64,000 nt of DNA from Paracoccus alcaliphilus. Lineage in GTDB: Bacteria > Pseudomonadota > Alphaproteobacteria > Rhodobacterales > Rhodobacteraceae. A program made the translations under genes and the position numbers. Below the pieces are notes generated by a model. It searched no databases. It worked only from the letters and a program-made list of their open reading frames with translations, and was not told the origin of the DNA. This document shows positions 1-19,216 of the stretch, one piece after another. Location of the stretch: positions 2,862,001-2,926,000 of the forward strand of contig NZ_CP067124.1 of assembly GCF_028553725.1 (NCBI RefSeq), written 5' to 3'. Positions within the stretch are counted from its first letter, which is position 1. The number at the start of each line of letters is the position of its first letter.

Positions 1-306
1 GAGACCGATGTCGTGACCGACAATGATGGCAGCGTGGCCGGGCTGCTGGCGAAATATGCTAATTACCTCACCTCGGATGTTGTCAAAATCCGGTACGACA
101 CGGACGAGACGGCCAAGACCCTTGAGCCACAGCTCGTCAAAAAGAACGGGCTGACAACCATAAATGCGGTACTCGGCAAGACTTTCACCGACGAAGCGAG
201 CGCCATCGAATACATGGTCAAGAACAAGGCAGATGTAGCCTTGAGGTTCTTCGAGACCACCGTGGATTGGTCCGTGCCGGACTATATAGCCGATGCCATC
301 CGCTAG
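1..306 (+). CDS. C-terminal part of an OLD-family ATP-dependent nuclease (TOPRIM end), cut by the window edge
   Basis: The reading frame is open from base 1, so only about 101 C-terminal residues are visible. The segment begins with a VTDNDGS stretch; a DxD motif in this setting is typical of the TOPRIM domain of OLD-family nucleases, and the TLEPQLV stretch after it also fits that family. Such proteins join an ABC-type ATPase to a TOPRIM nuclease. The stop overlaps the next gene, a UvrD-like helicase, by 14 bases, which implies translational coupling. An OLD nuclease followed by a UvrD helicase is the arrangement of Gabija (GajA-GajB) antiphage systems, but the ATPase half lies outside the window, so the family assignment is inference. 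The GC content is visibly lower than in the chromosomal half. Confidence 0.6.
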   Translation, partial: ETDVVTDNDGSVAGLLAKYANYLTSDVVKIRYDTDETAKTLEPQLVKKNGLTTINAVLGKTFTDEASAIEYMVKNKADVALRFFETTVDWSVPDYIADAIR

Positions 307-920
307 CCGCATCGTTATAGCCGCCGCCGGCGGCGGCAAGACCACCCGCGTCGTCGATCAGGCGCTAGGTGCTGACACAGGCATTACGGCGCTTGTGACA
401 TACACGCGGAATAATATCCGCGAGATCGGGCTCAAGATGCATGAACGCTCAAGGGCGATCCCTCCGCATGTCGAGGTGATTTCGTGGTACACGTTCCTCT
501 TGCATGAACTGGCCCGCCCCTACCAGTCAGCAATGCACTCCCGCAGGATCGATGGATTTTTTTGGACCGAAGGAAAGTCGGTCATTTATGCGCCGGAGGC
601 CAACACGGCAGCACATTATTTTTCCGATGGCCGCCTAATCTACTCCGATAAAATCTCGAAGTTCATCTGCGCGTGCGACGCCAAATCCGGCGGTTCGGTG
701 ATGCGAAGGTTGCGGCAGCGGTTTGCCCATATCATCATCGACGAAATTCAGGACATGGCGGGCTACGACCTAGATTTGCTGGAGCTGATGCTCAGGTCGA
801 ACGTCAGGGTGACGTTCGTCGGCGATCACCGCCAAGCCACCTTTGCCACCAACAATGCTCCGAAGAACAAGGCTTTCCGAGGCCCGGCTATCATCAATAA
901 GTTCGAAGCATGGAAGAAGG
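293..920 (+). pseudogene. UvrD-like superfamily 1 helicase, 5' part (interrupted by the IS6100 unit)
   Basis: This part encodes the N-terminal helicase core. Motif I is AAAGGGKTT at about residues 10-18, motif II is DEIQD, and motif III is VGDHRQATF. The frame is open to the end of IS6100 and would finish with a few IS-encoded residues. Joining base 920 to base 7302, which removes the IS6100 unit and one copy of the 8-bp duplication, restores one continuous 360-codon frame ending at 7756, so the gene was intact before insertion. Its start overlaps the upstream nuclease gene. At 360 residues it is shorter than what I recall for GajB helicases (about 500), so it may be a distinct small subfamily. 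Confidence 0.75.
913..920. repeat. Left target-site duplication of the IS6100 unit
   Basis: The octamer gaagaagg directly precedes the left IS6100 copy and is repeated directly after the right copy at 7294-7301. An 8-bp duplication is the size expected for IS6-family insertion. Confidence 0.9.
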
Positions 921-1800
921 GGCTCTGTTGCAAAAATCGTGAAGCTTGAGCATGCTTGGCGGAGATTGGACGGACGGAACGATGACGGATTTCAAGTGGC
1001 GCCATTTCCAGGGTGATGTGATCCTGTGGGCGGTGCGCTGGTATTGTCGCTATCCGATCAGCTATCGCGACCTTGAGGAAATGCTGGCGGAACGCGGCAT
1101 TTCGGTCGACCATACGACGATCTATCGCTGGGTCCAGTGCTACGCCCCGGAGATGGAGAAGCGGCTGCGCTGGTTCTGGCGGCGTGGCTTTGATCCGAGC
1201 TGGCGCCTGGATGAAACCTACGTCAAGGTGCGGGGCAAGTGGACCTACCTGTACCGGGCAGTCGACAAGCGGGGCGACACGATCGATTTCTACCTGTCGC
1301 CGACCCGCAGCGCCAAGGCAGCGAAGCGGTTCCTGGGCAAGGCCCTGCGAGGCCTGAAGCACTGGGAAAAGCCTGCCACGCTCAATACCGACAAAGCGCC
1401 GAGCTATGGTGCAGCGATCACCGAATTGAAGCGCGAAGGAAAGCTGGACCGGGAGACGGCCCACCGGCAGGTGAAGTATCTCAATAACGTGATCGAGGCC
1501 GATCACGGAAAGCTCAAGATACTGATCAAGCCGGTGCGCGGTTTCAAATCGATCCCCACGGCCTATGCCACGATCAAGGGATTCGAAGTCATGCGAGCCC
1601 TGCGCAAAGGACAGGCTCGCCCCTGGTGCCTGCAGCCCGGCATCAGGGGCGAGGTGCGCCTTGTGGAGAGAGCTTTTGGCATTGGGCCCTCGGCGCTGAC
1701 GGAGGCCATGGGCATGCTCAACCACCATTTCGCAGCAGCCGCCTGATCGGCGCAGAGCGACAGCCTACCTCTGACTGCCGCCAATCTTTGCAACAGAGCC
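921..1800 (+). mobile_element. IS6100: IS6100, left copy (880 bp)
   Basis: The element begins ggctctgttgcaaa and ends with the inverted complement tttgcaacagagcc, giving 14-bp terminal inverted repeats. Its length of 880 bp matches IS6100. It encodes one intact transposase and is in the same orientation as the right copy. On its right side it abuts a 152-bp Tn402 IRt fragment, as in In4-type integrons. Confidence 0.95.
982..1746 (+). CDS. tnpA: IS6100 transposase (IS6 family, DDE)
   Basis: A 254-residue transposase that carries out replicative cointegrate formation. The catalytic DDE triad is visible in LDETYVKV, NTDKAPSY and NVIEADHG, and a helix-turn-helix region (the YRDLEEML segment onward) lies near the N-terminus. 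I chose the ATG at 982 because MTDFKWRHF is the usual IS6100 start; an upstream in-frame start would add 12 residues. The product appears identical to that of the right copy, so both are potentially active. Confidence 0.95.
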   Translation: MTDFKWRHFQGDVILWAVRWYCRYPISYRDLEEMLAERGISVDHTTIYRWVQCYAPEMEKRLRWFWRRGFDPSWRLDETYVKVRGKWTYLYRAVDKRGDTIDFYLSPTRSAKAAKRFLGKALRGLKHWEKPATLNTDKAPSYGAAITELKREGKLDRETAHRQVKYLNNVIEADHGKLKILIKPVRGFKSIPTAYATIKGFEVMRALRKGQARPWCLQPGIRGEVRLVERAFGIGPSALTEAMGMLNHHFAAAA

Positions 1801-1952
1801 TCCGTCGCCATGCTCACCTCGCTTTGGTGCACACGAGTATTGAGCATAGTCGAGATTGGTGCAGATCACTTCTGATATTGAACTGTCAGGAGCTGGCTGC
1901 ACAACAGCCATTACGCCCAATCAACTGGTGCAGTCGTCTTCTGAAAATGACA
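1801..1952 (+). repeat. Tn402-type IRt end fragment (152 bp) next to IS6100
   Basis: The segment runs from the right edge of IS6100 to a 25-bp terminal repeat at 1928-1952, whose complement begins tgtcattttcagaagacg. That is the IRt end of Tn402-like class 1 integrons. A 152-bp IRt fragment beside IS6100 is the arrangement I recall from In4. The outer end faces right, toward a second integron end. Confidence 0.8.
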
Positions 1953-1994
1953 TGCAGGGCGTGTCGCAAAACTTAGGACTTATGCGACGCTTAC
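1953..1994. other. 42-bp spacer between two integron ends, with a resolvase-site-like palindrome
   Basis: This short spacer separates IRt (left) from IRi (right). Positions 1963-1988 form an interrupted inverted repeat with gtcgca and tgcgac arms, the size and shape of a serine-resolvase binding site. Tn402-family elements are known to insert preferentially in res sites, so this is probably a scrap of a res region. No resolvase gene remains beside it. Confidence 0.5.
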
Positions 1995-2019
1995 TGTCGT
2001 TTTCAGAAGACGGCTGCAC
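1995..2019. repeat. IRi, outer inverted repeat of the class 1 integron 5' conserved segment
   Basis: A 25-bp repeat beginning tgtcgttttcagaagacg, identical in layout to the IRi end of class 1 integrons. It marks the left edge of the 5' conserved segment. The remainder of that segment, 2020-2196, holds no gene and leads into the 3' end of intI1. Confidence 0.9.
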
Positions 2020-2196
2020 TGAACGTCAGAAGCCGACTGCACTATAGCAGCGGAGGGGTTGGATCCATCAGGCAACGACGGGCTGCTGCCGGCCATCAGC
2101 GGACGCAGGGAGGACTTTCCGCAACCGGCCGTTCGATGCGGCACCGATGGCCTTCGCGCAGGGGTAGTGAATCCGCCAGGATTGACTTGCGCTGCC

Positions 2197-3210
2197 CTAC
2201 CTCTCACTAGTGAGGGGCGGCAGCGCATCAAGCGGTGAGCGCACTCCGGCACCGCCAACTTTCAGCACATGCGTGTAAATCATCGTCGTAGAGACGTCGG
2301 AATGGCCGAGCAGATCCTGCACGGTTCGAATGTCGTAACCGCTGCGGAGCAAGGCCGTCGCGAACGAGTGGCGGAGGGTGTGCGGTGTGGCGGGCTTCGT
2401 GATGCCTGCTTGTTCTACGGCACGTTTGAAGGCGCGCTGAAAGGTCTGGTCATACATGTGATGGCGACGCACGACACCGCTCCGTGGATCGGTCGAATGC
2501 GTGTGCTGCGCAAAAACCCAGAACCACGGCCAGGAATGCCCGGCGCGCGGATACTTCCGCTCAAGGGCGTCGGGAAGCGCAACGCCGCTGCGGCCCTCGG
2601 CCTGGTCCTTCAGCCACCATGCCCGTGCACGCGACAGCTGCTCGCGCAGGCTGGGTGCCAAGCTCTCGGGTAACATCAAGGCCCGATCCTTGGAGCCCTT
2701 GCCCTCCCGCACGATGATCGTGCCGTGATCGAAATCCAGATCCTTGACCCGCAGTTGCAAACCCTCACTGATCCGCATGCCCGTTCCATACAGAAGCTGG
2801 GCGAACAAACGATGCTCGCCTTCCAGAAAACCGAGGATGCGAACCACTTCATCCGGGGTCAGCACCACCGGCAAGCGCCGCGACGGCCGAGGTCTTCCGA
2901 TCTCCTGAAGCCAGGGCAGATCCGTGCACAGCACCTTGCCGTAGAAGAACAGCAAGGCCGCCAATGCCTGACGATGCGTGGAGACCGAAACCTTGCGCTC
3001 GTTCGCCAGCCAGGACAGAAATGCCTCGACTTCGCTGCTGCCCAAGGTTGCCGGGTGACGCACACCGTGGAAACGGATGAAGGCACGAACCCAGTGGACA
3101 TAAGCCTGTTCGGTTCGTAAGCTGTAATGCAAGTAGCGTATGCGCTCACGCAACTGGTCCAGAACCTTGACCGAACGCAGCGGTGGTAACGGCGCAGTGG
3201 CGGTTTTCAT
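2197..3210 (-). CDS. intI1: Class 1 integron integrase IntI1
   Basis: A full-length 337-residue tyrosine recombinase that inserts and excises gene cassettes at attI1 and attC. The catalytic core is visible: GTGMRISE (Arg), HTLRHSFAT (H-x-x-R) and the TMIYTH nucleophile tyrosine. The IntI-specific extra segment lies between the conserved boxes ([11 protein letters not shown] region). It reads away from the cassette array, and the cassette promoter Pc lies inside its coding sequence on the opposite strand. The frame is intact, so it is probably active. Confidence 0.97.
3095..3123 (+). promoter_or_regulatory. Pc cassette promoter, weak variant (PcW)
   Basis: The -35 box tggaca and -10 box taagct are separated by 17 bases, inside intI1 on the opposite strand. 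This pair is the known weak Pc version. It should drive aadA2. Confidence 0.88.
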
Positions 3211-3213
3211 GGC

Positions 3214-3239
3214 TTGTTATGACTGTTTTTTTGTACAGT
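3214..3239 (+). promoter_or_regulatory. P2 promoter position, inactive (14-bp spacer)
   Basis: The ttgtta and tacagt boxes are present but only 14 bases apart. Active P2 has a three-G insertion that makes the spacer 17, and that insertion is absent here. Confidence 0.8.
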
Positions 3240-3288
3240 CTATGCCTCGGGCATCCAAGCAGCAAGCGCGTTACGCCGTGGGTCGATG

Positions 3289-3353
3289 TTTGATGTTATG
3301 GAGCAGCAACGATGTTACGCAGCAGGGCAGTCGCCCTAAAACAAAGTTAGACA
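3289..3353 (+). other. attI1: attI1 recombination site
   Basis: The region between intI1 and the first cassette ends in the crossover core gttagac at 3346-3352. The outer limits are set by the known attI1 length of about 65 bp. Confidence 0.85.
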
Positions 3354-3355
3354 TC

Positions 3356-4147
3356 ATGAGGGAAGCGGTGACCATCGAAATTTCGAACCAACTATCAGAG
3401 GTGCTAAGCGTCATTGAGCGCCATCTGGAATCAACGTTGCTGGCCGTGCATTTGTACGGCTCCGCAGTGGATGGCGGCCTGAAGCCATACAGCGATATTG
3501 ATTTGTTGGTTACTGTGGCCGTAAAGCTTGATGAAACGACGCGGCGAGCATTGCTCAATGATCTTATGGAGGCTTCGGCTTTCCCTGGCGAGAGCGAGAC
3601 GCTCCGCGCTATAGAAGTCACCCTTGTCGTGCATGACGACATCATCCCGTGGCGTTATCCGGCTAAGCGCGAGCTGCAATTTGGAGAATGGCAGCGCAAT
3701 GACATTCTTGCGGGTATCTTCGAGCCAGCCATGATCGACATTGATCTAGCTATCCTGCTTACAAAAGCAAGAGAACATAGCGTTGCCTTGGTAGGTCCGG
3801 CAGCGGAGGAATTCTTTGACCCGGTTCCTGAACAGGATCTATTCGAGGCGCTGAGGGAAACCTTGAAGCTATGGAACTCGCAGCCCGACTGGGCCGGCGA
3901 TGAGCGAAATGTAGTGCTTACGTTGTCCCGCATTTGGTACAGCGCAATAACCGGCAAAATCGCGCCGAAGGATGTCGCTGCCGACTGGGCAATAAAACGC
4001 CTACCTGCCCAGTATCAGCCCGTCTTACTTGAAGCTAAGCAAGCTTATCTGGGACAAAAAGAAGATCACTTGGCCTCACGCGCAGATCACTTGGAAGAAT
4101 TTATTCGCTTTGTGAAAGGCGAGATCATCAAGTCAGTTGGTAAATGA
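3356..4147 (+). CDS. aadA2: Aminoglycoside (3'')(9) adenylyltransferase, AadA2 type (streptomycin/spectinomycin resistance)
   Basis: Transfers AMP to streptomycin and spectinomycin in the cytoplasm. The 263-residue product has the nucleotidyltransferase motif GSAVDGGLKPYSDIDLLV, and its sequence matches AadA2 rather than AadA1 (for example VTIEISNQLSEVL and the C-terminus IIKSVGK). The frame is also open upstream, but ATG 3356 directly follows the attI1 core, the normal cassette position. It is the only cassette in the array and is expressed from Pc, here a weak version. The four-residue N-terminal variation (MREA) is common among aadA cassettes. Confidence 0.95.
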   Translation: MREAVTIEISNQLSEVLSVIERHLESTLLAVHLYGSAVDGGLKPYSDIDLLVTVAVKLDETTRRALLNDLMEASAFPGESETLRAIEVTLVVHDDIIPWRYPAKRELQFGEWQRNDILAGIFEPAMIDIDLAILLTKAREHSVALVGPAAEEFFDPVPEQDLFEALRETLKLWNSQPDWAGDERNVVLTLSRIWYSAITGKIAPKDVAADWAIKRLPAQYQPVLLEAKQAYLGQKEDHLASRADHLEEFIRFVKGEIIKSVGK

Positions 4148-4148
4148 T

Positions 4149-4207
4149 GTCTAACAATTCGTTCAAGCCGACCGCGCTACGCGCGGCGGCTTAACTCCGG
4201 CGTTAGA
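4149..4207 (+). other. attC site of the aadA2 cassette
   Basis: The roughly 60-bp site runs from gtctaac to cgttaga and contains the inner inverted repeat accgcgctacgcgcggcgg. It lies just after the aadA2 stop. Confidence 0.85.
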
Positions 4208-4310
4208 TGCACTAAGCACATAATTGCTCACAGCCAAACTATCAGGTCAAGTCTGCTTTTATTATTTTTAAGCGTGCATAATAAGCCCTACACAAATTGG
4301 GAGATATATC

Positions 4311-4658
4311 ATGAAAGGCTGGCTTTTTCTTGTTATCGCAATAGTTGGCGAAGTAATCGCAACATCCGCATTAAAATCTAGCGAGGGCTTTACTAAGCTT
4401 GCCCCTTCCGCCGTTGTCATAATCGGTTATGGCATCGCATTTTATTTTCTTTCTCTGGTTCTGAAATCCATCCCTGTCGGTGTTGCTTATGCAGTCTGGT
4501 CGGGACTCGGCGTCGTCATAATTACAGCCATTGCCTGGTTGCTTCATGGGCAAAAGCTTGATGCGTGGGGCTTTGTAGGTATGGGGCTCATAATTGCTGC
4601 CTTTTTGCTCGCCCGATCCCCATCGTGGAAGTCGCTGCGGAGGCCGACGCCATGGTGA
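4311..4658 (+). CDS. qacEdelta1: QacEdelta1, truncated small multidrug-resistance efflux protein
   Basis: A four-helix inner-membrane SMR-type proton antiporter for quaternary ammonium compounds. The 115-residue product starts [19 protein letters not shown], with the family glutamate (GEV) in helix 1. The last part of helix 4 is replaced by [13 protein letters not shown], the hallmark of the 3' conserved segment version, which confers reduced resistance. It overlaps sul1 by 7 bases. Confidence 0.97.
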
Positions 4659-5491
4659 CGGTGTTCGGCATTCTGAATCTCACCGAGGACTCCTTCTTCG
4701 ATGAGAGCCGGCGGCTAGACCCCGCCGGCGCTGTCACCGCGGCGATCGAAATGCTGCGAGTCGGATCAGACGTCGTGGATGTCGGACCGGCCGCCAGCCA
4801 TCCGGACGCGAGGCCTGTATCGCCGGCCGATGAGATCAGACGTATTGCGCCGCTCTTAGACGCCCTGTCCGATCAGATGCACCGTGTTTCAATCGACAGC
4901 TTCCAACCGGAAACCCAGCGCTATGCGCTCAAGCGCGGCGTGGGCTACCTGAACGATATCCAAGGATTTCCTGACCCTGCGCTCTATCCCGATATTGCTG
5001 AGGCGGACTGCAGGCTGGTGGTTATGCACTCAGCGCAGCGGGATGGCATCGCCACCCGCACCGGTCACCTTCGACCCGAAGACGCGCTCGACGAGATTGT
5101 GCGGTTCTTCGAGGCGCGGGTTTCCGCCTTGCGACGGAGCGGGGTCGCTGCCGACCGGCTCATCCTCGATCCGGGGATGGGATTTTTCTTGAGCCCCGCA
5201 CCGGAAACATCGCTGCACGTGCTGTCGAACCTTCAAAAGCTGAAGTCGGCGTTGGGGCTTCCGCTATTGGTCTCGGTGTCGCGGAAATCCTTCTTGGGCG
5301 CCACCGTTGGCCTTCCTGTAAAGGATCTGGGTCCAGCGAGCCTTGCGGCGGAACTTCACGCGATCGGCAATGGCGCTGACTACGTCCGCACCCACGCGCC
5401 TGGAGATCTGCGAAGCGCAATCACCTTCTCGGAAACCCTCGCGAAATTTCGCAGTCGCGACGCCAGAGACCGAGGGTTAGATCATGCCTAG
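4652..5491 (+). CDS. sul1: Sulfonamide-insensitive dihydropteroate synthase Sul1
   Basis: Condenses p-aminobenzoate with the pterin pyrophosphate in folate synthesis while excluding sulfonamides. The 279-residue product starts [15 protein letters not shown] and shows DHPS motifs ([38 protein letters not shown]). I chose ATG 4652 from the known Sul1 start; the frame also extends upstream into qacEdelta1. It is part of the integron 3' conserved segment and appears full length. Confidence 0.97.
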
Positions 5492-5618
5492 CATTCACCT
5501 TCCGGCCGCCCGCTAGCGGACCCTGGTCAGGTTCCGCGAAGGTGGGCGCAGACATGCTGGGCTCGTCAGGATCAAACTGCACTATGAGGCGGCGGTTCAT
5601 ACCGCGCCAGGGGAGCGA

Positions 5619-6119
5619 ATGGACAGCGAGGAGCCTCCGAACGTTCGGGTCGCCTGCTCGGGTGATATCGACGAGGTTGTGCGGCTGATGCACGACGCTG
5701 CGGCGTGGATGTCCGCCAAGGGAACGCCCGCCTGGGACGTCGCGCGGATCGACCGGACATTCGCGGAGACCTTCGTCCTGAGATCCGAGCTCCTAGTCGC
5801 GAGTTGCAGCGACGGCATCGTCGGCTGTTGCACCTTGTCGGCCGAGGATCCCGAGTTCTGGCCCGACGCCCTCAAGGGGGAGGCCGCATATCTGCACAAG
5901 CTCGCGGTGCGACGGACACATGCGGGCCGGGGTGTCAGCTCCGCGCTGATCGAGGCTTGCCGCCATGCCGCGCGAACGCAGGGGTGCGCCAAGCTGCGGC
6001 TCGACTGCCACCCGAACCTGCGTGGCCTATACGAGCGGCTCGGATTCACCCACGTCGACACTTTCAATCCCGGCTGGGATCCAACCTTCATCGCAGAACG
6101 CCTAGAACTCGAAATCTAA
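5619..6119 (+). CDS. Orf5 GNAT-family acetyltransferase of the integron 3' conserved segment
   Basis: A 166-residue protein with a GNAT fold; the acetyl-CoA-binding segment is LAVRRTHAGRGVSSALIEA and the late motif is LYERLGF. It is the standard orf5 that follows sul1 in class 1 integrons. Its substrate is unknown. Its presence shows that the 3' conserved segment extends well past sul1, as in In4. Confidence 0.92.
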   Translation: MDSEEPPNVRVACSGDIDEVVRLMHDAAAWMSAKGTPAWDVARIDRTFAETFVLRSELLVASCSDGIVGCCTLSAEDPEFWPDALKGEAAYLHKLAVRRTHAGRGVSSALIEACRHAARTQGCAKLRLDCHPNLRGLYERLGFTHVDTFNPGWDPTFIAERLELEI

Positions 6120-6413
6120 CGTCCGTTCGGGCATCGAGGTCCATGTCGGGGTGGGACGGGCCCGTGGCTTCAAGATCACTTGCAGTCCGACCGCGATGTC
6201 TTGGTTGCGCGAGAGGTTGTCGATATCCTCCACTTCCATCATCAACCCTGGATAATGCCGCCGCCGTCATCGCCGCCGACGCCCGTGCCGGGCTTTTCGG
6301 GCCTGTCAGGCTTGCTCGGCCTTCAGCCTGCCTGGGCGAGATCTCCGGCGGACGGATTAACGGCGGAGCTTCGCCGCCTTTCGTGCGTGTGAAGGCCGAA
6401 GATAGTTCTCTCA
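6120..6413 (+). other. End of the 3' conserved segment; no intact gene
   Basis: These 294 bases between orf5 and the right IS6100 copy contain only fragmentary frames. The position corresponds to the partial orf6 region of In4-type integrons, cut by IS6100. Nothing else is recognisable. Confidence 0.6.
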
Positions 6414-7293
6414 GGCTCTGTTGCAAAAATCGTGAAGCTTGAGCATGCTTGGCGGAGATTGGACGGACGGAACGATGACGGATTTCAAGTGGCGCCATTT
6501 CCAGGGTGATGTGATCCTGTGGGCGGTGCGCTGGTATTGTCGCTATCCGATCAGCTATCGCGACCTTGAGGAAATGCTGGCGGAACGCGGCATTTCGGTC
6601 GACCATACGACGATCTATCGCTGGGTCCAGTGCTACGCCCCGGAGATGGAGAAGCGGCTGCGCTGGTTCTGGCGGCGTGGCTTTGATCCGAGCTGGCGCC
6701 TGGATGAAACCTACGTCAAGGTGCGGGGCAAGTGGACCTACCTGTACCGGGCAGTCGACAAGCGGGGCGACACGATCGATTTCTACCTGTCGCCGACCCG
6801 CAGCGCCAAGGCAGCGAAGCGGTTCCTGGGCAAGGCCCTGCGAGGCCTGAAGCACTGGGAAAAGCCTGCCACGCTCAATACCGACAAAGCGCCGAGCTAT
6901 GGTGCAGCGATCACCGAATTGAAGCGCGAAGGAAAGCTGGACCGGGAGACGGCCCACCGGCAGGTGAAGTATCTCAATAACGTGATCGAGGCCGATCACG
7001 GAAAGCTCAAGATACTGATCAAGCCGGTGCGCGGTTTCAAATCGATCCCCACGGCCTATGCCACGATCAAGGGATTCGAAGTCATGCGAGCCCTGCGCAA
7101 AGGACAGGCTCGCCCCTGGTGCCTGCAGCCCGGCATCAGGGGCGAGGTGCGCCTTGTGGAGAGAGCTTTTGGCATTGGGCCCTCGGCGCTGACGGAGGCC
7201 ATGGGCATGCTCAACCACCATTTCGCAGCAGCCGCCTGATCGGCGCAGAGCGACAGCCTACCTCTGACTGCCGCCAATCTTTGCAACAGAGCC
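6414..7293 (+). mobile_element. IS6100: IS6100, right copy (880 bp)
   Basis: Same ends and orientation as the left copy, and the encoded transposase appears identical. Its left edge truncates the integron 3' conserved segment; its right edge abuts the helicase gene, with the duplicated octamer at 7294-7301. Confidence 0.95.
6475..7239 (+). CDS. tnpA: IS6100 transposase, second copy
   Basis: A 254-residue DDE transposase whose sequence appears identical to the product of 982-1746, with the same start (MTDFKWRHF) and catalytic motifs. Two identical direct copies 5.5 kb apart allow loss of the integron by homologous recombination, which would leave a single IS6100 in the helicase gene. Confidence 0.95.
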   Translation: MTDFKWRHFQGDVILWAVRWYCRYPISYRDLEEMLAERGISVDHTTIYRWVQCYAPEMEKRLRWFWRRGFDPSWRLDETYVKVRGKWTYLYRAVDKRGDTIDFYLSPTRSAKAAKRFLGKALRGLKHWEKPATLNTDKAPSYGAAITELKREGKLDRETAHRQVKYLNNVIEADHGKLKILIKPVRGFKSIPTAYATIKGFEVMRALRKGQARPWCLQPGIRGEVRLVERAFGIGPSALTEAMGMLNHHFAAAA

Positions 7294-7301
7294 GAAGAAG
7301 G
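7294..7301. repeat. Right target-site duplication of the IS6100 unit
   Basis: The octamer gaagaagg matches 913-920 exactly. Confidence 0.9.
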
Positions 7302-7756
7302 CAGGACTAGTCTCGATTGACTACGAGAGCGAAACTTACCGCTGCAATCAGGCGCTTGCTAATCTTGGCGACAGCTTCTTCCCGAACGAGCCGAAAACGA
7401 AATCACTCAATGGCACGATCACAGGACACGACGGCGTGTTCCTCGTCAAAAGTGCCGACGTGGACGCCTACATGCATCAGTTCGCGCCGCAGGCTCTACG
7501 CTACTCCGCAGCAACGAACTGCGAGCTTCCCGGAGTCATGAATTTTGGAGAATCGAAAGGGCTCACGTTCGACCGCGTCATGATCTACCCGCACGGACTT
7601 GCTAAGAAATGGCTGAAAACCGGAGACCTCACTCATGTAGCTAAGTCGGTGGCGAAGATGTATGTTGCATCAACACGCGCGCGGTATAGTGTCGCGTTTG
7701 TCTATGACGGCGCGACCTGTGCTATCCCCGCCACTCGGTGGATGGCAGTCGTCTGA
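7302..7756 (+). pseudogene. UvrD-like helicase, 3' part (after the IS6100 unit)
   Basis: In frame with the 5' part once the insertion is removed. It encodes the C-terminal helicase half: GESKGLTFDRVMIYP (motif V-like) and YVASTRARYSVAFVYD (motif VI, with the conserved TRAR arginines). The stop TGA at 7754-7756 overlaps the ATG of the next gene by one base (tgatg). As it stands no start signal is evident, so the fragment is probably silent unless IS6100 supplies transcription and an internal ATG at about 7436 is used. Confidence 0.75.
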
Positions 7757-7913
7757 TGGGCAACATCAAAACCAACTCAGCACCTAAAATCGCCTGTATC
7801 GGCTGGGGTTCGCTCATATGGGAGCCGCGTGATTTGCCTATAATTGGCGATTGGCATTCTAACGGGCCTAGCCTTCCGGTGGAGTTTGCTCGGCAATCCT
7901 CCGCAGATCATAT
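7756..7913 (+). pseudogene. Gamma-glutamylcyclotransferase-like protein, 5' part (interrupted by IS66 element)
   Basis: This part encodes 52 complete residues plus two bases, including IACIGWGSLIWEPRDLPI, which resembles the N-terminal GSL motif of the GGCT/ChaC fold, and LPVEFARQSS. The frame stops two codons' worth of bases into the IS66 element. Joining base 7913 to 10448 restores a 192-residue protein. The one-base overlap with the helicase stop shows it is the third gene of the operon. The enzymatic role is unknown; GGCT-like folds act on gamma-glutamyl amines or glutathione in some families. Confidence 0.6.
7906..7913. repeat. Left target-site duplication of the IS66-family element
   Basis: The octamer gatcatat lies directly before the element and again at 10440-10447. 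Eight bases is the IS66-family duplication length. Confidence 0.9.
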
Positions 7914-7933
7914 GTAAGCGCGACGTTGCGGCC

Positions 7934-9499
7934 CTATGCTGCGAGGCTTGACGGCTGGTTGAAGCGCCATGGCATGAGGTCTTCGATACCGCTTTGTGGG
8001 TGACCGTCGAGGATGGCGCGCAGTGTGGCGGCGAGATAGTCGACCGGGTTCACGTCGGACATCTTGCAGGTAGCGACCAGCGAGGCGAGCATAGCCCAGT
8101 TTTCGGCGCCGACTTCATTCCCGGCGAAGAGTGCATTTTTTCTTGTCAGGGCAATCGGCCTGATCTGGTTCTCGACCGGGTTGGTGTCGAGCTCCAGCAT
8201 GCCGTGCTCGAGGAAGCGGATCAGTCCGGGCCAGTGCGCGAGGGAGTAGCGGATGTCTTCGGCAAGCTGGGATTTCTGCGGTATGCGCGAGAGTTGGGCT
8301 TCCAGCCAGGGTTTCAGCGCCGCGATGATCGGGGCCGAATGCTCACGCCGGGCAGCAAGGCGCATAGCGGCCTCCTTGCTCCGCACGGACTTCTCGATCT
8401 GATAAAGCAGCGCGATCTGGCGCAGCATTTCCTCGGCAATGGGTGAACCATCGCTCTCGAAGCGCTTTACGAAGCGGCGGCGGACATGGGTCCAGCAATA
8501 GACCAGTTGCCACGGGCCATTGTCGCGCGCGATCTCGGTCATCGCGTTGTAGGACTGGTAGGCGTCGCATTGCAGGAAGCGGCCGTGGTATCCGGCGAGG
8601 AAGTTCAGCGGATGCGCCTTACCCCGGCCAGGGGCATAGTGGAAGAGCACGATGGGTGGGCCAGCCCCGCCATGGCCGCGATCATCGGATACGACGGCCC
8701 AGAAGAATCCGCTCTTGGTGCGTTTCAGGCCCGGTTCCAGCACCGGCGCGCGGGTTTCATCCACGAAGATGCGGTCTGCGCCACGCAGATGGGCACGCAT
8801 CTGGTTGATGACGGGCATCAGGTGGAAACAGGCGCGCCCGACCCAGTTGCCGAGTGTGCCGCGGTCCAGATCGATCCCTTGCCGCTTGAAGATCTCGGCC
8901 TGCCGATAAAACGGCAGGTGGTCACCGAACTTCGAGACGATAATCCAGGCGATGAAGAGTTCCGTGGGCAGCCCGCCGGGCACGACATGCTCGGGGGCAT
9001 GGGCCTGCGCGACAGCTTGCGAGCAACGGCGGCAGGCGTATTTCGGGCGCCGCGTGACCAGCACCCGGAACTGGGCGGGGATCACGTCGAGACGTTCGGA
9101 CACGTCTTCCCCGATCCTGGACATCTCGCCGCAACCGCAGGGACAGAGCGTGCTGGCAGGCTCGATCACGCGCTCAACCCGAGGCAGATGGGACGGCAGA
9201 TGCCCGCGGTTGCGCTTGGGCTTGCGGGGTGTTTCCCCGCGCGCCCGCTGCATCGCCGCTTCGGCCTTTTCTTGTGCTGCCTCGAGCACACCTTGAGCAA
9301 ATTCGGCATCTTCCAGGGGCAGGTTGAACTGGTCGGGCGAGAGCTTTTCGGAGCGCTTGCCGAATTTCTCGCGCTGCGCCGCGTGCAGGATATCCTGCAG
9401 CCGCCGATTGGCCTCTTGCGTCTCGGCCAGCGTCGCCTCCACCTCGGCGAGGCGGGCCTTCAGCAGGGCGTTTTCGCGCGCAAGATCAGCTGTTTCCAT
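7934..9499 (-). CDS. tnpC: IS66 transposase TnpC
   Basis: The 521-residue main transposase of IS66 elements. It has an N-terminal leucine-rich coiled coil (METADLARENALLKARLAEVE onward, about residues 1-45), a zinc-binding segment (CPCGCGEM ... CRRCS), and the catalytic DDE region with VDETRAP, QCDAYQSYN and LDTNPVENQIRP. I chose ATG 9499 because the coiled coil starts there; the frame extends 40 residues further upstream without homology-like character. It follows tnpB with a gap of 68 bases. Confidence 0.93.
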   Translation of the reverse strand: METADLARENALLKARLAEVEATLAETQEANRRLQDILHAAQREKFGKRSEKLSPDQFNLPLEDAEFAQGVLEAAQEKAEAAMQRARGETPRKPKRNRGHLPSHLPRVERVIEPASTLCPCGCGEMSRIGEDVSERLDVIPAQFRVLVTRRPKYACRRCSQAVAQAHAPEHVVPGGLPTELFIAWIIVSKFGDHLPFYRQAEIFKRQGIDLDRGTLGNWVGRACFHLMPVINQMRAHLRGADRIFVDETRAPVLEPGLKRTKSGFFWAVVSDDRGHGGAGPPIVLFHYAPGRGKAHPLNFLAGYHGRFLQCDAYQSYNAMTEIARDNGPWQLVYCWTHVRRRFVKRFESDGSPIAEEMLRQIALLYQIEKSVRSKEAAMRLAARREHSAPIIAALKPWLEAQLSRIPQKSQLAEDIRYSLAHWPGLIRFLEHGMLELDTNPVENQIRPIALTRKNALFAGNEVGAENWAMLASLVATCKMSDVNPVDYLAATLRAILDGHPQSGIEDLMPWRFNQPSSLAA

Positions 9500-9567
9500 G
9501 GCGGGAAGTGAATCACAGGATGCCCTTGCAGGCCAGCAAAAACAGGCGTTTCGACGCAGCCTGCCAG

Positions 9568-9924
9568 TCACCCCGCCGCCAGCGGGCGCCGCGCCCGTTC
9601 GGGTCGGACCAGCCGCCAATCCACGCCCTCAAACAGCGCTGCAAACTGCGCTCCGGACATGCGCATGACCCCGTCGCGCACCTGTGGCCAGACGAACTTG
9701 CCGCCCTCGAGCCGCTTGTGAACCAGCACCATCCCGGTCTGATCCCAGATCAAGAGCTTGATCCGATCCGCCCGCTTCGCTCGGAACACAAAGGCGGCTC
9801 CGCAGAACGGGTCCATCCCGAACATCTCCTGCACCGCCAGTGCCAGACCGTCGATCCCCTTGCGAAAGTCGACAGGCCGGGTCGCCACGAAGACCTTCAC
9901 CGGGCCGCCCTGGCCGAACATCAC
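9568..9924 (-). CDS. tnpB: IS66 accessory protein TnpB (Orf2)
   Basis: A 118-residue IS66 Orf2 protein, recognised from VKVFVATRPVDFRKGIDGL and the KLLIWDQTGMVLVHKRLE core. It is required for IS66 transposition, but its biochemical role is unclear. Its ATG overlaps the tnpA stop by 4 bases. Confidence 0.93.
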   Translation of the reverse strand: MMFGQGGPVKVFVATRPVDFRKGIDGLALAVQEMFGMDPFCGAAFVFRAKRADRIKLLIWDQTGMVLVHKRLEGGKFVWPQVRDGVMRMSGAQFAALFEGVDWRLVRPERARRPLAAG

Positions 9925-10337
9925 GACGCCGCTGCCCGTGCCGCGCGGATTGCCCGGGTCAGTTGGCCCTCGTCGACACCAGGACCCGCGCGGATGGCGA
10001 TGTCGCCCACCACGATTTCGAGATCGGACCCGGCGACAGCCGCCGAAGCCTCAGTCGCGCTGTCATCAACCACCAGTTCCGCGAAGAACGGCAAGGCCGC
10101 CACGCTTTCGGGCACCACCAAATTACCTTTGCGTATCTGCTTGCGCCAATCGTAAATCTGCCAGCGGGTCGTGCCGTGCTTGCGCGCAGTATCTGCGACC
10201 GTCACCCCGGGCATCATGCTCTCCGCCGCGATCCGCGCCCGCTCTGCCTTCGTCCGCCGCCGACGACCGCTTGGCCCCCCGATCACCTCAAGCCGCGAGA
10301 CCCCGACGCCTATAGAGCCGTCCAATTGGACGCCCAT
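9921..10337 (-). CDS. tnpA: IS66 accessory protein TnpA (Orf1, helix-turn-helix)
   Basis: A 138-residue DNA-binding protein with a helix-turn-helix in MPGVTVADTARKHGTTRWQI followed by the YDWRKQIRKG recognition segment, typical of IS66/IS3-type Orf1. I chose ATG 10337 because GGAGAG lies about 10 bases upstream; an upstream TTG would add eight residues. Confidence 0.88.
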   Translation of the reverse strand: MGVQLDGSIGVGVSRLEVIGGPSGRRRRTKAERARIAAESMMPGVTVADTARKHGTTRWQIYDWRKQIRKGNLVVPESVAALPFFAELVVDDSATEASAAVAGSDLEIVVGDIAIRAGPGVDEGQLTRAIRAARAAAS

Positions 10338-10439
10338 TTTGCCGTCTCTCTCCAAATCCAAAACCTCCGCTGCACATGTCCAGCGGAGAATGAAGGCATC
10401 AACTCAAAAATGGCAGGAGGGGATCGGCGTCGCGCTTAC

Positions 10440-10447
10440 GATCATAT
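10440..10447. repeat. Right target-site duplication of the IS66-family element
   Basis: The octamer gatcatat matches 7906-7913 exactly. Confidence 0.9.
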
Positions 10448-10868
10448 CACACTCGTCATAGTTGAAAGCGATCATCGCGTTCCCACGCTGTGGGCCGAGT
10501 TGAATGTGGAGACCGTCGCTCAAGCCGTTGAGGCGCTCAGGGTAAGGGAGGGCGTGCCCTATGAAAGTTCAATCGGCCGTTGGCCTAACGATACTCAAAA
10601 AGAATATCTATCGAGCGATGCTATAGCCGAGTGGGCAACAGCGAATGGAGTGCAGGCAGTTGTATGGACCGCGCTGCTGCCGGGAATGAAGGGAAATAGG
10701 GGTTCGATTCCAACCCTGGACGAATTAACCGTCCACCTCGCAAAGCTGGAAGGCTCAGCTCTCTCAAAAGCCAAAATCTACATAGCGAATGCGCCGTCTC
10801 AGATAGCCACGCCTTATCGGCAAGACCTTGCCAAGGCTTGCGAAACCTCGTCGAGCGATACGCTATGA
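10448..10868 (+). pseudogene. Gamma-glutamylcyclotransferase-like protein, 3' part
   Basis: Continues the frame of 7756-7913 once the IS66 element is removed (junction residues DHITLVIVESDHRVPTLW). It includes VQAVVWTALLPGMKGN and a charged C-terminus. The stop TGA overlaps the ATG of the next gene (atga at 10865-10868), so the four-gene operon organisation continues to the right of the insertion. Confidence 0.6.
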
Positions 10869-12556
10869 CAGATGGCGGCCGTAAGTTTTCTGAGCTGCGT
10901 CACGACCTGCTTGATCCACAAGCGGACCACTATGAGGTGCCTTTGACATTCGCCGCGACGCTGCGTGCGCACGGTTCATATGAGACCACGCGCTTCGTGC
11001 TGCGCCTCAGCCCGAAAAATCATGAGCTGGTGGATAAGCTTGAGGTAAACGCATACGGCGACGGTCCCATCCCTTGGGAAGCGATACAGGCTTACTCGAC
11101 CTACATTCACGAGACCATACACTGGTGGCAGCATGTGGGCTCGACGTCAGGACTGCTGCTGAGCCTGAGCTATTTCTCGCAGCTACATTCGACAATGGAC
11201 GAGCTTCGGGAATGCCTGAAAAGGTTTGGCCCGATCAAATCGCTGAAACGATATACCGATGAGGTGTTGCTGGACGAAGGATGGGAGGCTCAGGAAAAGC
11301 TCGCTCCAGCAAACTTTGCTGTAAATAATGCGCTCGATATATTCTACTATAAATCATACGCTCTTCGCCCAAGGCAGGCAATACAATGGATGATTAAAGA
11401 TAATCATTTCGAAGACATTGGATATATGTATAGCATCGTTTACGGACAGCTTATCGGCTTGGTTTCAGGTGCTATCGATCCAGAATTCCAATTTTTGCCA
11501 AGCCTAGAGCGCCTCAGCGAAGAAACTCTTCGCTTACATACAGAAGGCCATGAGGGGTTTGTAAAAAACTCAAACGTGCATCTTCCTTATGTTGGACTTC
11601 ACGCGATTTACGAAGGGCAGGCACGTTTCATTCAGCTTGATTTTCTTAATCGCGCGCGGGACGAGCCGTTGACCTGCGAGGAGTGGCGAACCGAGGGCTA
11701 TCTCTCAGGCATATACGTTGAGGCTTTTGAAAGCTTCCTGAAGCATACGGAAACGGAATGGCCCTCTTCTCTTTCCGACCCGATTGTCCCGCTTTTCCTT
11801 TTGGTGTGCGATCTCGCGATCAATCCTACGCGCGGGCTCCCGTTTGATTTCGGCCATTTGGAAAACTTGATCCACCACGTCGATGTAGGAATACGGTTTG
11901 CCGAATTTTGCTTCGCGATCAAAGACGCACCGAATTTGAAATCCGCGATAAAGAAATTATCTTTAGAGGAATATGTTGAGGTTTCAAGCGAGCTTTGTAA
12001 AGCGCGCCATTACGACCATCCAATGGCAGCTTTGGAAGAGGTAGTGCGATGGGCGGAGGAATATCCGCTTGTTCAGCGGCTTATGGAGGAGCACCGGACA
12101 TTCAAATTCAACCCTGAGAACCTGAATATCAGAGTCTTTCTTTCGCACTACATTTCGATGTGTAAAGACAAGTACGAACATCCGCACTTTTTCTGCTGGC
12201 CGGGGGCATATATGGCAGGTCATCCGAGCGAGGTGGATTTCCGACAAGTATGGTTGCGCCACTTGTCGCTGTTTAGCGACAAGGCCGACAAGGACGGGGT
12301 ATACCCCCGAAAATGGCCCGACCGCTCTGAAAAGGCTGTGATGGAAACCTTCAATCGCTTTTATGGCACGATGGCGCTCTATGAATTAACCGAGCAATGG
12401 ATTTTGCGCGATGGGCCGTTCAATTGTGATTTTAGCTGGATGTCTGACAATTACGATGAACAGTCTTTCAGAGGCTGGGCAAATGACAGTTTCAGAAAGG
12501 CTTTCGGGGCTGATCTTTCCGCGTTCAAAATTCTAGGCTCCAAGCCGCAGACGTAA
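10865..12556 (+). CDS. Putative zinc metalloprotease-like protein with HEXXH motif, fourth gene of the operon
   Basis: A 563-residue protein that I do not recognise as a named family. It has a classical zinc motif HETIH at about residues 82-86, in THETIHWWQH, and a downstream YEGQARF segment (around residue 247) whose glutamate could be the third metal ligand, as in gluzincins. No signal peptide or membrane segment is visible, so it is probably cytosolic. I chose ATG 10865 because it overlaps the preceding stop by 4 bases. It lies in an operon with an OLD nuclease and a helicase and may be a protease effector; this is inference. It is the only complete gene of the operon within the window. 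Confidence 0.6.
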   Translation: MTDGGRKFSELRHDLLDPQADHYEVPLTFAATLRAHGSYETTRFVLRLSPKNHELVDKLEVNAYGDGPIPWEAIQAYSTYIHETIHWWQHVGSTSGLLLSLSYFSQLHSTMDELRECLKRFGPIKSLKRYTDEVLLDEGWEAQEKLAPANFAVNNALDIFYYKSYALRPRQAIQWMIKDNHFEDIGYMYSIVYGQLIGLVSGAIDPEFQFLPSLERLSEETLRLHTEGHEGFVKNSNVHLPYVGLHAIYEGQARFIQLDFLNRARDEPLTCEEWRTEGYLSGIYVEAFESFLKHTETEWPSSLSDPIVPLFLLVCDLAINPTRGLPFDFGHLENLIHHVDVGIRFAEFCFAIKDAPNLKSAIKKLSLEEYVEVSSELCKARHYDHPMAALEEVVRWAEEYPLVQRLMEEHRTFKFNPENLNIRVFLSHYISMCKDKYEHPHFFCWPGAYMAGHPSEVDFRQVWLRHLSLFSDKADKDGVYPRKWPDRSEKAVMETFNRFYGTMALYELTEQWILRDGPFNCDFSWMSDNYDEQSFRGWANDSFRKAFGADLSAFKILGSKPQT

Positions 12557-12810
12557 ATGGCAGGGGCGAAGTCCATCCAAACGTTGAATGCGCGCGGCAA
12601 TGTCATGCTTTAGGTCACGTGCGACTATTTTAGAAAGCCGCCGATTCTAAGCTATGACCCGATATTCTGGTAGCGGCACACGGCAGCTTCCCACTCCATT
12701 CCCGACAAAACTACCACTGATTGTCACCTCTACTTGGAATACTTCCATTTCGGTTCTTGCTTGATCATTCTCGGCCCCGTACGCTCTTCGTCGCAGCGGG
12801 GGGCTGAACA
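12557..12810. other. Intergenic region before the TIR locus
   Basis: These 254 bases are relatively AT-rich and contain only short frames. They probably hold the promoter of the next two genes, but I cannot point to a clear -35/-10 pair. Confidence 0.5.
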
Positions 12811-13848
12811 ATGGCAAAGCGTTTTCCATGGAAAAGAAATTACCTTATAATTCCGCCGTTTGTGCAGAGCGCACTTAATGACATTGACGGCGACTTCATC
12901 GCTGTCGCTGCGACAAAGAAAATCAAACGTGAAGATATTGAAGCGGGGCAGTATAGTCACGCTGGATTAAGCATAGACGGCTCCTTCATCATCGCCGTTG
13001 GTCCAACCCACCCCCCTGCCGATGCAGGAAAGTGGTCTGAGCGGAACGCTTATGGCTGGGACCGTAAGCGTGAGGATTGGCCGATGGTCCAGAAGACATG
13101 GACCTTCGAGTCACCCAACTTCGGGGACGGCGCGCGCAACGGCTGGACAATGCGTTCTTGGACAAAAGACGTTTACCAGCACCAAATTTTTGAACCGCAG
13201 GGCATGACCATCGAAGCGAGTGTACTTGAAGATAGAGGCGGCGAGCAGGTGGTAGTCAAATTTGCTCTCGCGCCCATGCTTAGCCGAAGCGCAGCCGAGT
13301 TCGACTTAATGCTGCTTTGGGCGATCAACGTCCTGCAAGAGAATACGGGCGTCACGGGCGTGTTCGCGAGCGACGCGACGCGCGAAGAATACATTTCAAC
13401 CGTCGCGCTGGACTGGCAAATTTTCCCGCCGGGCAACGCTGACGAAGTTGTTGCTCGCTTGTTGGGATCGGCCGATCCGACGAACGCCGCCGACTTTGAG
13501 AAGCATGTTCGCGAGCGGGTGCGACTGTTCGAGGGTTTCGAGCCGAGGGCCTACATACGCGGTCAGGGCGGCTTCGGCTCATATTTCGGAGCACAGTTTG
13601 CTGACGATTTAGTCGTGTTCGAGAACCTTAGATACGGCAACGCGGTCTATTTGCTGTATCAAGATTGGAATGAAGCATCGCAACGGTCGCGGCTCGATCT
13701 TCTCCGCGATCAGGACGCACACTTTGATCGCGTAGTGCATACTGATGGATGGCAAGATAGGCTTGTATCACTGTTGCACGATAAGCTCTTTGAACGCGGC
13801 CTACGGCGGCGGCGGAGTGGCTACCGGTCAAAACGTAGCGGCCGCTGA
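12811..13848 (+). CDS. Unknown protein paired with a TIR-domain protein
   Basis: A 345-residue protein with no family that I recognise. It starts MAKRFPWKRNYLIIPPF and lacks a signal peptide or membrane helices. The C-terminus is very basic (GLRRRRSGYRSKRSGR). The middle contains an aromatic, mixed alpha/beta-like segment (FDLMLLWAINVLQENTGVTGVFASD). It lies 62 bases upstream of a TIR-domain gene on the same strand, so it may be its sensor or regulatory partner. That role rests on gene position only. Confidence 0.5.
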   Translation: MAKRFPWKRNYLIIPPFVQSALNDIDGDFIAVAATKKIKREDIEAGQYSHAGLSIDGSFIIAVGPTHPPADAGKWSERNAYGWDRKREDWPMVQKTWTFESPNFGDGARNGWTMRSWTKDVYQHQIFEPQGMTIEASVLEDRGGEQVVVKFALAPMLSRSAAEFDLMLLWAINVLQENTGVTGVFASDATREEYISTVALDWQIFPPGNADEVVARLLGSADPTNAADFEKHVRERVRLFEGFEPRAYIRGQGGFGSYFGAQFADDLVVFENLRYGNAVYLLYQDWNEASQRSRLDLLRDQDAHFDRVVHTDGWQDRLVSLLHDKLFERGLRRRRSGYRSKRSGR

Positions 13849-13910
13849 CTTGCTGGAAAACAACTTCAACGTTCCGACAGAACAGTGGATGAGCAGGAGG
13901 GGGAGAGCAT

Positions 13911-14627: not shown

Positions 14628-15166
14628 GAAAATCGGGTGATAAGCGGGTTGAGCGTCCGAACTCGGGACTAGGTGCCACCAGATCGCGATTGTGCCTGAA
14701 AGGCGGGTTTCATGGAATGTCCGCTGGAACCCGCTACTCCGCTTCGCACCCCATTTTAGCCATTCGTTCTTGCTTCAATTTAGAGGGCTATAGCGTAGGT
14801 GTAGTTCTCCGTTTCGTCGGCTTCGGCCCGCCACTTGCCCTCGCGAAAGCGTTCTCCCCATCCGGCTCCGGCCGGATTTTTCCGTTGTTTTCGAGGGTTA
14901 TGCGGGAAGAGCTGAGCACCGTGCCTGCCGCGCGGCGGCACGGAAGCGGTCTCTCAGGGTCGATATTCTCCGGACCTGATGACTGCGCCAGTTTGGTGAA
15001 TTCTTCACAAGACATTGAATTTACAGAGGTTAATCTCCTGCCTGCTGAACACTTCGATTTCAGGGACATTCTTTGAGAAGGAACAGAAATCGAACCTTTG
15101 GTCGAATTACGAAGTGGCTGGGCTGTCCCTTCGACCCTCGAGTGGGACTTGTGTGGTGATGCCCGA
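14628..15166. other. 539-bp region without a convincing gene
   Basis: Frames of about 130-150 codons exist on both strands but lack recognisable domains, and the two overlap each other. The minus-strand frame (about 14788-15234) has a basic tail KRRTTPTL that could be a decayed protein end. Nothing firm can be assigned. Confidence 0.4.
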
Positions 15167-19063: not shown

Positions 19064-19095
19064 CGTCAACTCCATTGGCGAGTGCTGTTGGAGCT

Positions 19096-19126
19096 CTTCT
19101 GCTCTTTCCAGTCACTGGAAGGTCAA
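19096..19126 (-). promoter_or_regulatory. CueR-type promoter/operator for copA
   Basis: Reading leftward, -35 ttgacc and a -10-like cagaag are separated by 19 bases containing the dyad ttccagtgactggaa. An overlong 19-bp spacer with an internal dyad is the signature of MerR-family activation. Confidence 0.82.
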
Positions 19127-19153
19127 CACCCGATTTCGTGTTGATGTCGCCCC

Positions 19154-19184
19154 TTGACCTTCCACCAACTGGAAGCCCCATCTT
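19154..19184 (+). promoter_or_regulatory. CueR-type promoter/operator for copZ
   Basis: The boxes ttgacc and catctt are separated by 19 bases containing ttccaccaactggaa. It diverges from the copA promoter 28 bases away. Confidence 0.82.
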
Positions 19185-19216
19185 GAAAGGTAAGCAGAAC
19201 CCTTCAGGAGAGTGCC

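What the first reader, a model, noticed from the sequence alone, without database searches (positions are those of the whole stretch)
1..12556. Four-gene overlapping operon (OLD nuclease, UvrD helicase, GGCT-like, HEXXH protein), doubly interrupted by mobile elements
Seen: the four genes overlap at every junction (14 bases, tgatg, and atga after removing the insertions). The first two recall the Gabija nuclease-helicase pair, but the added GGCT-like and HEXXH proteins are not part of Gabija as I know it. Nuclease, helicase, possible amide-bond chemistry and possible protease in one operon suggest a larger defence system. Both insertions leave perfect 8-bp duplications, so the ancestral genes can be rebuilt. 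Defence function is inference.
Basis: partly seen in the sequence, partly recalled or inferred. Interest (0 to 1): 0.82.

Follow-up and report, generated by a model that had tools for sequence, protein, structure and literature searches.

The report
Gabija defence operon with two add-ons
A known two-gene bacterial anti-phage system (Gabija) here shares one operon with two extra genes, a small enzyme of an amide-cleaving fold and a predicted zinc protease from a family with no database name, and related extra genes turn up beside Gabija systems elsewhere; in this genome the operon has been broken by two jumping elements.

Summary
Kaistia adipata carries the same four genes uninterrupted and practically identical, so intact proteins were studied without joining pieces. 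Genes 1-2 are a short-type Gabija pair (PADLOC GajA 778 bits; both GajB pieces match). Genes 3-4 match no Pfam, PADLOC or NCBIfam family. Gene 3 has the ChaC/GGCT fold. Gene 4 (family M) keeps HExxH and EGQA motifs in nearly all of 83 aligned rows and has no recognised fold. The four genes occur uninterrupted in 3 other records; GajAB-M without gene 3 in 2 more. A GajA-GajB pair lies in the held flank of 13 of 79 M loci (0.05-0.1 expected), from five GajA subfamilies; gene 3 follows yet another, canonical pair on a viral contig. Against a fixed system: 66 of 79 M loci show no pair, 24 of 26 gene-3 loci without M have no OLD gene upstream, and 10 of 10 further short GajAB loci lack both. Best reading: Gabija extended by portable accessory genes, probably a protease arm (inferred); in this genome very likely dead.

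The parts
1..306 (+). gene 1, 3' end of gajA-like OLD nuclease gene (whole gene G000:C1:2860708-2862306, 532 aa, GTG start)
   Evidence: PADLOC GajA PDLC00102 777.6 bits over 1-532; Pfam AAA_15 and OLD-like_TOPRIM
293..920 (+). gene 2, 5' piece of gajB-like SF1 helicase gene
   Evidence: PADLOC GajB PDLC00148 268 bits, profile 1-215 of 369; overlaps gene 1 by 14 bases
913..920 (.). target duplication GAAGAAGG, left copy
   Evidence: sequence; single copy in L005 7812-7819
921..7293 (.). inserted unit: IS6-family copy (921-1800), integron integrase (2197-3210 -), AadA-type gene (within 3140-4147 +), QacE gene (4311-4658 +), Sul1 gene (within 4565-5491 +), ORF without NCBIfam match (5619-6119 +), IS6-family copy (6414-7293)
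   Evidence: absent from L005
7294..7301 (.). target duplication GAAGAAGG, right copy
   Evidence: sequence
7302..7756 (+). gene 2, 3' piece
   Evidence: PADLOC GajB PDLC00148 176.5 bits, profile 218-366 of 369
7756..7913 (+). gene 3, 5' piece of GGCT-fold protein (motif GWGSLIW)
   Evidence: sequence; intact relatives P0128, L005 8274-8852
7906..7913 (.). target duplication GATCATAT, left copy
   Evidence: sequence; single copy in L005 8424-8431
7914..10439 (.). inserted IS66-family element (transposase 7934-9619 -)
   Evidence: absent from L005
10440..10447 (.). target duplication GATCATAT, right copy
   Evidence: sequence
10448..10868 (+). gene 3, 3' piece
   Evidence: 139-residue piece finds 67 relatives, intact close ones 192 aa
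10865..12556 (+). gene 4 (family M), 563 aa, intact; predicted zinc metallopeptidase
   Evidence: 940 relatives counted; HExxH at 11108-11122, Glu of EGQA at 11612-11614, kept in 81-83 of 83 rows; no Pfam/PADLOC/NCBIfam match and no sequence match among solved structures

Best explanation
This is a Gabija anti-phage system of the short GajA/GajB type (532 and about 360 residues) extended, in one operon with overlapping genes, by two portable accessory genes: a GGCT-fold enzyme (gene 3) and a predicted zinc metallopeptidase of an unnamed family (gene 4, M). Shown here: the identities of genes 1-2, the operon, the recurrence of the set and of its parts, and the disruption in this genome. Inferred: GajAB does what it does in characterised Gabija (DNA nicking that needs GajB in the cell), and M is a second, proteolytic arm or a protease that switches or processes the GajAB complex; gene 3 would act on a gamma-glutamyl-type amide and tune or protect that arm. 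The add-ons seem to be swapped between Gabija backbones rather than inherited strictly with them. In the window genome genes 2 and 3 are broken, so the system is very likely inactive; the insert that broke gene 2 carries drug-resistance genes. Likelihood: 'Gabija plus functionally linked accessories' about 0.6; M as an effector or processing protease about 0.4; any specific role for gene 3 about 0.2.
Against: 66 of 79 M loci have no Gabija pair in the held flank (up to 9 kb a side, often less); M sits among phage genes without Gabija in two Pantoea plasmids. Short GajAB without M or gene 3: 10 of 10 further fetched plasmid and viral loci; 1765 plasmid records match GajB but only 9 match M. 24 of 26 gene-3 loci without M have no OLD/GajA gene directly upstream. 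M is found in the window genome alone among 385 class and 398 phylum genomes. AB and M identities are incongruent (L005-L007: A 76, B 67, M 82; L005-L012: A 80, B 72.5, M 59), so co-evolution is not shown. No solved fold resembles M, its third zinc ligand is a guess, and the M of L007, in an otherwise open operon, has Tyr for the first His. The 13 loci are not all independent, and the pairs of L024/L025 score weakly (24-34 bits to the seeds).
Confidence: 0.6

Rival explanations
1. Ordinary Gabija with independent passengers: genes 3 and 4 are separate defence-island genes (M a stand-alone anti-phage or anti-plasmid gene) that happen to be cotranscribed after gajB, without working with it.
For: 66 of 79 M loci and 24 of 26 gene-3 loci without M show no Gabija pair or upstream OLD gene; M beside other defence-type genes, e.g. 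an hsdR-like protein in L031 (425 bits) and a giant protein in L015 with weak DUF626/Avs4 matches; M among phage structural genes; AB and M incongruent.
Against: Overlapping or near-touching genes in six operons (L005, L006, L007, L012, L018, L026), association with several Gabija subfamilies on both strands, gene 3 behind an unrelated canonical Gabija.
Confidence: 0.27
2. Gene 3 and gene 4 are a toxin/immunity or enzyme/regulator pair of their own (gene 3 restraining M), parked behind Gabija.
For: Gene 3-M pairs without GajAB in L060 and in L011 (where only about 2.7 kb before gene 3 is held); start/stop overlap between them.
Against: Only 5 of the 79 M loci have a gene-3 relative beside M, and the GajAB-M operons L012 and L026 lack it; gene 3 occurs without M in 26 fetched loci.
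Confidence: 0.08
3. Genes 3 and 4 are housekeeping genes caught in the operon.
For: Gene-3 relatives sit in ordinary-looking plasmid surroundings in Pantoea and Caballeronia; the fold is that of a metabolic enzyme family.
Against: No housekeeping family matches; M in 1 of 385 and 1 of 398 genomes sampled.
Confidence: 0.03

Closest known systems
Gabija (GajA-GajB; class 2 OLD nucleases)
   Same: OLD ATPase-TOPRIM gene followed by an SF1 (UvrD-like) helicase gene in one operon; best PADLOC matches GajA PDLC00102 and GajB PDLC00148.
   Different: Shorter GajB (about 360 residues against 494 in the solved GajB) and two further genes, which the passages of the three Gabija papers that I saw do not mention.
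ChaC / gamma-glutamylcyclotransferase family
   Same: Gene 3 has this fold and a GWGSLIW motif that aligns with the YGSLIW of ChaC proteins; an invariant Glu87.
   Different: No match to Pfam ChaC or GGCT in 26 of 26 relatives; Tyr of the YGS motif is Trp in 24 of 26; substrate unknown. The window genome has two ChaC-family genes elsewhere.
HExxH zinc metallopeptidases (gluzincin-like)
   Same: HExxH plus a downstream EGxA motif, near-invariant in 83 rows of M. That EGxA is a usual third-ligand motif is recalled, not tested.
   Different: No sequence or fold match to any; about 160 residues between HExxH and EGQA.
Lone-OLD systems
   Same: OLD nuclease gene with an accessory gene; gene 3 also follows a lone OLD in L153.
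   Different: A helicase gene is present in the window operon.

Membership tests
Gabija | GajA: ABC ATPase plus OLD-type TOPRIM | tested here: met
   Pfam AAA_15, OLD-like_TOPRIM; PADLOC GajA 777.6 bits over 532 residues
Gabija | GajB: UvrD/Rep-like SF1 helicase encoded next to gajA | tested here: met
   Both pieces match PDLC00148; intact relatives carry PF00580; 14-base overlap with gajA
Gabija | Four-subdomain GajB with both accessory subdomains | tested here: inconclusive
   Only the length is known (360 against 494 residues); no model of GajB was made
Gabija | 4:4 GajA-GajB complex and sequence-guided nicking | not testable with these tools
   needs biochemistry; described for B. cereus in PMC10781630 (passages seen)
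Gabija | Anti-phage protection | not testable with these tools
   no experiment; genes 2 and 3 are broken here
ChaC / GGCT | GGCT fold | tested here: met
ChaC / GGCT | Sequence membership (Pfam ChaC, GGCT) and YGS motif | tested here: not met
   0 of 26 relatives match ChaC or GGCT models (only four weak unrelated families listed); Tyr replaced by Trp in 24 of 26, Ser 26 of 26. So: GGCT-like fold, not filed as ChaC
ChaC / GGCT | Catalytic glutamate | tested here: inconclusive
   Glu87 invariant in 26 of 26, but hhalign aligned only a 12-column stretch around GWGSLIW to ChaC and a global run gave nothing usable
HExxH zinc metallopeptidase | HExxH | tested here: met
   81-82 of 83 rows; exceptions L007 (YETVH) and L016 (stretch missing from the open frame used)
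HExxH zinc metallopeptidase | Third zinc ligand near the HExxH helix in space | tested here: inconclusive
   Glu250 in 83 of 83, but distances in the model could not be read
HExxH zinc metallopeptidase | Known peptidase fold | tested here: inconclusive

The most novel reading that the evidence does not exclude
M is a protease arm of Gabija: an unnamed helical zinc metallopeptidase that several unrelated GajA/GajB subfamilies have recruited independently, giving Gabija a DNA-cutting and a protein-cutting output (or a proteolytic switch), with the GGCT-fold enzyme as a further recruited partner.
Probability: 0.33. Interest if true: 0.8.

Novelty: new variant of a known kind. Interest (0 to 1): 0.6.

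Why it matters
[quoted passage not shown] An accessory gene that joins several Gabija subfamilies would give a genetic handle on how infection is turned into protection. M has at least 940 relatives and, in the 83 rows aligned here, a near-invariant metal motif, yet no Pfam, NCBIfam or PADLOC entry matched. The window also shows a defence operon broken by, among others, a resistance-carrying transposon, while an intact twin exists in another genus.

Tried and rejected
Searching the M neighbours with the window's own GajAB found pairs in few loci; seeds from other subfamilies and PADLOC showed the wider pattern. Clustering the same-strand operon neighbours of M gave, apart from GajA, GajB and gene 3 (5 loci each), no partner cluster shared by more than 4 loci. 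The idea that small genes before M elsewhere are distant gene-3 homologues failed: among operon neighbours only L005, L006, L007, L011 and L060 score; L065 is marginal. M has no relative in the phage collection and one weak PHROG match (E 0.0075). Fold searches with M gave only noise. Sampling genomes was unproductive: GajB 3 of 385, M 1 of 385 and 1 of 398, gene 3 10 of 398, window genome included in each. Paper searches on Gabija with protease, metallopeptidase, accessory-gene or integron terms, on metalloprotease/HEXXH with anti-phage or defense-island terms, and on GGCT or ChaC with toxin, anti-phage or phage-defense terms listed nothing that describes such an operon (I saw listings with the first lines of abstracts: 15 of 21, 15 of 576, 4 of 4, 3 of 3, 12 of 247, 3 of 3, 8 of 323, 8 of 143 papers; no bioRxiv held). 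Four papers were opened for passages only. The Poisson figures assume independent loci and 4-Mb genomes and are rough. In the M tree rows L010, L025, L027, L035, L044, L081 (best M frame under 400 residues) and L084 (same layout as L012) were left out; the 83 rows include the window and its identical twin L005. In one search only the 120 best M (of 940), 119 of the 120 best B listed (of 2512; one has no contig length) and all 67 G could be compared.
Full report
WHAT IS THERE. Other contigs of that genome resemble Paracoccus plasmids (79% identity over 98% of a 12-kb query to P. zhejiangensis; repABC genes like those of P. yeei and others), so the host is probably a Paracoccus or a close relative. 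Gene 1 begins 1.3 kb before the window and is intact.

THE INSERTIONS. The first, 921-7293, is bounded by two direct IS6-family copies of 880 bases (IS6100 is a recalled name) and holds integron integrase, AadA-type, QacE and Sul1 genes. The second, 7914-10439, is IS66. Kaistia adipata DSM 17808 (L005) carries the same stretch uninterrupted: its BLAST matches 2971-7819, 7812-8431 and 8424-12817 meet window -3928..920, 7294..7913 and 10440..14833 at 100, 100 and 99.98% identity and overlap by exactly 8 bases at both sites. So both insertions are recent and an uninterrupted twin exists in another genus. Because the insert carries drug-resistance genes, I left the pieces unjoined and used natural relatives.

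GENES 1 AND 2. GajA: 777.6 bits to PADLOC PDLC00102 over the whole 532 residues; the two GajB pieces match consecutive parts (1-215 and 218-366 of 369) of PDLC00148. By eye gene 1 shows GNNECGKS, LIEEAE and VEGPSDE, and gene 2 AAGGGKTT, IIIDEIQDM, VGDHRQAT and TRARYSVAF (their roles as Walker, TOPRIM and SF1 motifs are recalled). GajB of this type is about 360 residues; the solved B. cereus GajB has 494 and showed no helicase activity (passages of PMC10681800). GajA and GajB form a 4:4 complex and both are needed in the cell (passages of PMC10781630). GajB relatives are common: 2512 proteins and 1765 plasmid records, all under 60% identity.

GENE 4 (M). 940 relatives (a lower bound, as candidates were capped). 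No Pfam, PADLOC or NCBIfam match for the window protein, and only weak, scattered Pfam matches (best E 0.025) among 28 relatives. In 83 aligned rows, whose record titles name proteobacteria, bacteroidetes, acidobacteria, verrucomicrobia, planctomycetes and others, His82-Glu83-x-x-His86 is kept in 81-82 and Glu250-Gly-Gln-Ala in 83. The model is helical (mean pLDDT 83.5, pTM 0.88), without a recognised fold. A zinc metallopeptidase is the likeliest reading; the third ligand is inferred.

CO-OCCURRENCE. A scan of one genome per species gave 79 M loci. Operons: GajAB-gene3-M in L005 (Kaistia), L006 (Brucella sp. 21LCYQ03) and L007 (Sphingobium MAG); GajAB-M in L012 (Paracoccus aurantiacus) and L026 (Maritimibacter); GajB-M with a GajA tail at the contig end in L018 (Bradyrhizobium). 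Tail-to-tail: L017, L059 and, as fragments, L019. Elsewhere in the flank: L013, L024, L025, L058. That is 13 of 79. PADLOC scans place the window and L058 (GajA), L017 (with L018 for GajB), L013, L059 and L024 in five best-scoring GajA subfamilies (PDLC00102, 04168, 00065, 00095, 00086); a Rhizobium plasmid (L090) adds a sixth (PDLC00072) 5 kb from M. L005-L007, L012, L019, L025 and L026 were assigned by similarity to seeds, not by PADLOC; L024/L025 score weakly there. With Gabija in about 15% of genomes (passage of PMC10568477), 1.27 Mb of flank should hold 0.05 pairs, or 0.1 at twice that density. On the M tree the state changes at least 9 times.

GENE 3 BEYOND M. I looked at 26 gene-3 loci without M: 8 viral (all found), 9 of 20 plasmid records and 9 genomic (all found besides the window; one, L154, has a stop inside gene 3). 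One, viral contig L110, has a canonical Gabija pair ending 20 bases upstream (GajA PDLC00070 779.8 bits, GajB PDLC00117 789.4 bits); one, L153, a lone OLD gene 68 bases upstream (PADLOC Old 195 bits). The other 24 gave no OLD/GajA hit, some with little upstream DNA held; L120 has a 1140-residue helicase 151 bases upstream with partial RTasHel and GajB matches. Gene 3 is therefore mostly a separate enzyme that sometimes joins OLD systems.

AGAINST A FIXED SYSTEM. Short GajAB without M or gene 3: L099-L103 on plasmids (5 of 1765 records fetched) and L105-L109 on viral contigs, 10 of 10 besides L104, which repeats L012; L105 and L107 hold under 700 bases behind gajB. L095 and L096 are 4-kb loci of two genomes of the class sample, in which M was found in no genome but the window's. 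M lies among phage genes, without Gabija, in two Pantoea plasmids. AB and M are incongruent. In the protein collections, contig lengths shared between lists exceed offset controls (M-B 9 against 1.0; M-G 7 against 0.28; G-B 5 against 0.4), though equal length is only indirect evidence of the same contig.

HOW IT MOST LIKELY WORKS. Shown: a Gabija pair with two additions in overlapping frames, shared with L006 at 93-95% DNA identity from about 260 bases before gene 1 to 76 bases after gene 4. Inferred: on infection GajAB cuts DNA as in studied Gabija; M, activated or delivered by the complex, cleaves proteins as a second output or processes the complex; gene 3 acts on a gamma-glutamyl-type bond. 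The strongest rival is that M and gene 3 are independent defence genes in a shared operon. In this genome genes 2 and 3 are interrupted, so protection by this copy is not expected.

VERDICT. It is a new variant of Gabija with portable accessories, of moderate to high interest because M is a large unnamed family that recurs beside several Gabija subfamilies.

Noticed in passing
window 12811-14627: TIR gene (13911-14627; PADLOC ThsB PDLC00424, 391 bits) behind an ORF with no match in Pfam, PADLOC, NCBIfam or PHROGs (12811-13848); both lie in DNA 99.97-99.98% identical in L010 and L005, so perhaps a second, two-gene TIR defence system on the same element.
   Followed up: partly
window 11541-14836 against L010; window -3928 to 14833 (and -7230 to -5665) against L005: Near-identical DNA (99.9-100%, inserts apart) in Kaistia and in an uncultured Paracoccus: a recently transferred segment. 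An RlxS-type relaxase (662 bits, below the model's cut-off) lies upstream at L002 9659-11737; neighbouring ORFs look like replication and transfer genes by eye, not tested.
   Followed up: partly
L092 and L093 (Pantoea plasmids with phage genes): M stands between PAAR/hypothetical and capsid/tail genes at the same place in two plasmids, like a phage cargo gene.
   Followed up: no
L110 3374-7552 (viral contig): Canonical GajA-GajB followed by a gene-3 relative; an integrase-like ORF lies at 1-1029 (by eye).
   Followed up: yes
L153 7308-13077: Lone OLD gene followed by a gene-3 relative; 1.4 kb on, two ORFs, the second reverse-transcriptase-like by its YADD motif (by eye, not tested).
   Followed up: partly
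L007 8986-10686: M of an otherwise open four-gene operon has Tyr for the first His of HExxH.
   Followed up: no
L089 537-7809: In a Mesorhizobium plasmid M lies about 3.4 kb from a multiubiquitin/E2/ThiF cluster and directly after a DUF3800 gene.
   Followed up: no
window 16550-24677: Block with two ORFs that look like heavy-metal P-type ATPases (by eye, not scanned).
   Followed up: no
window 28485-28569: ARAGORN calls a tRNA with a stop-type anticodon (tta) inside an ORF that looks like aroB; probably a false call.
   Followed up: no
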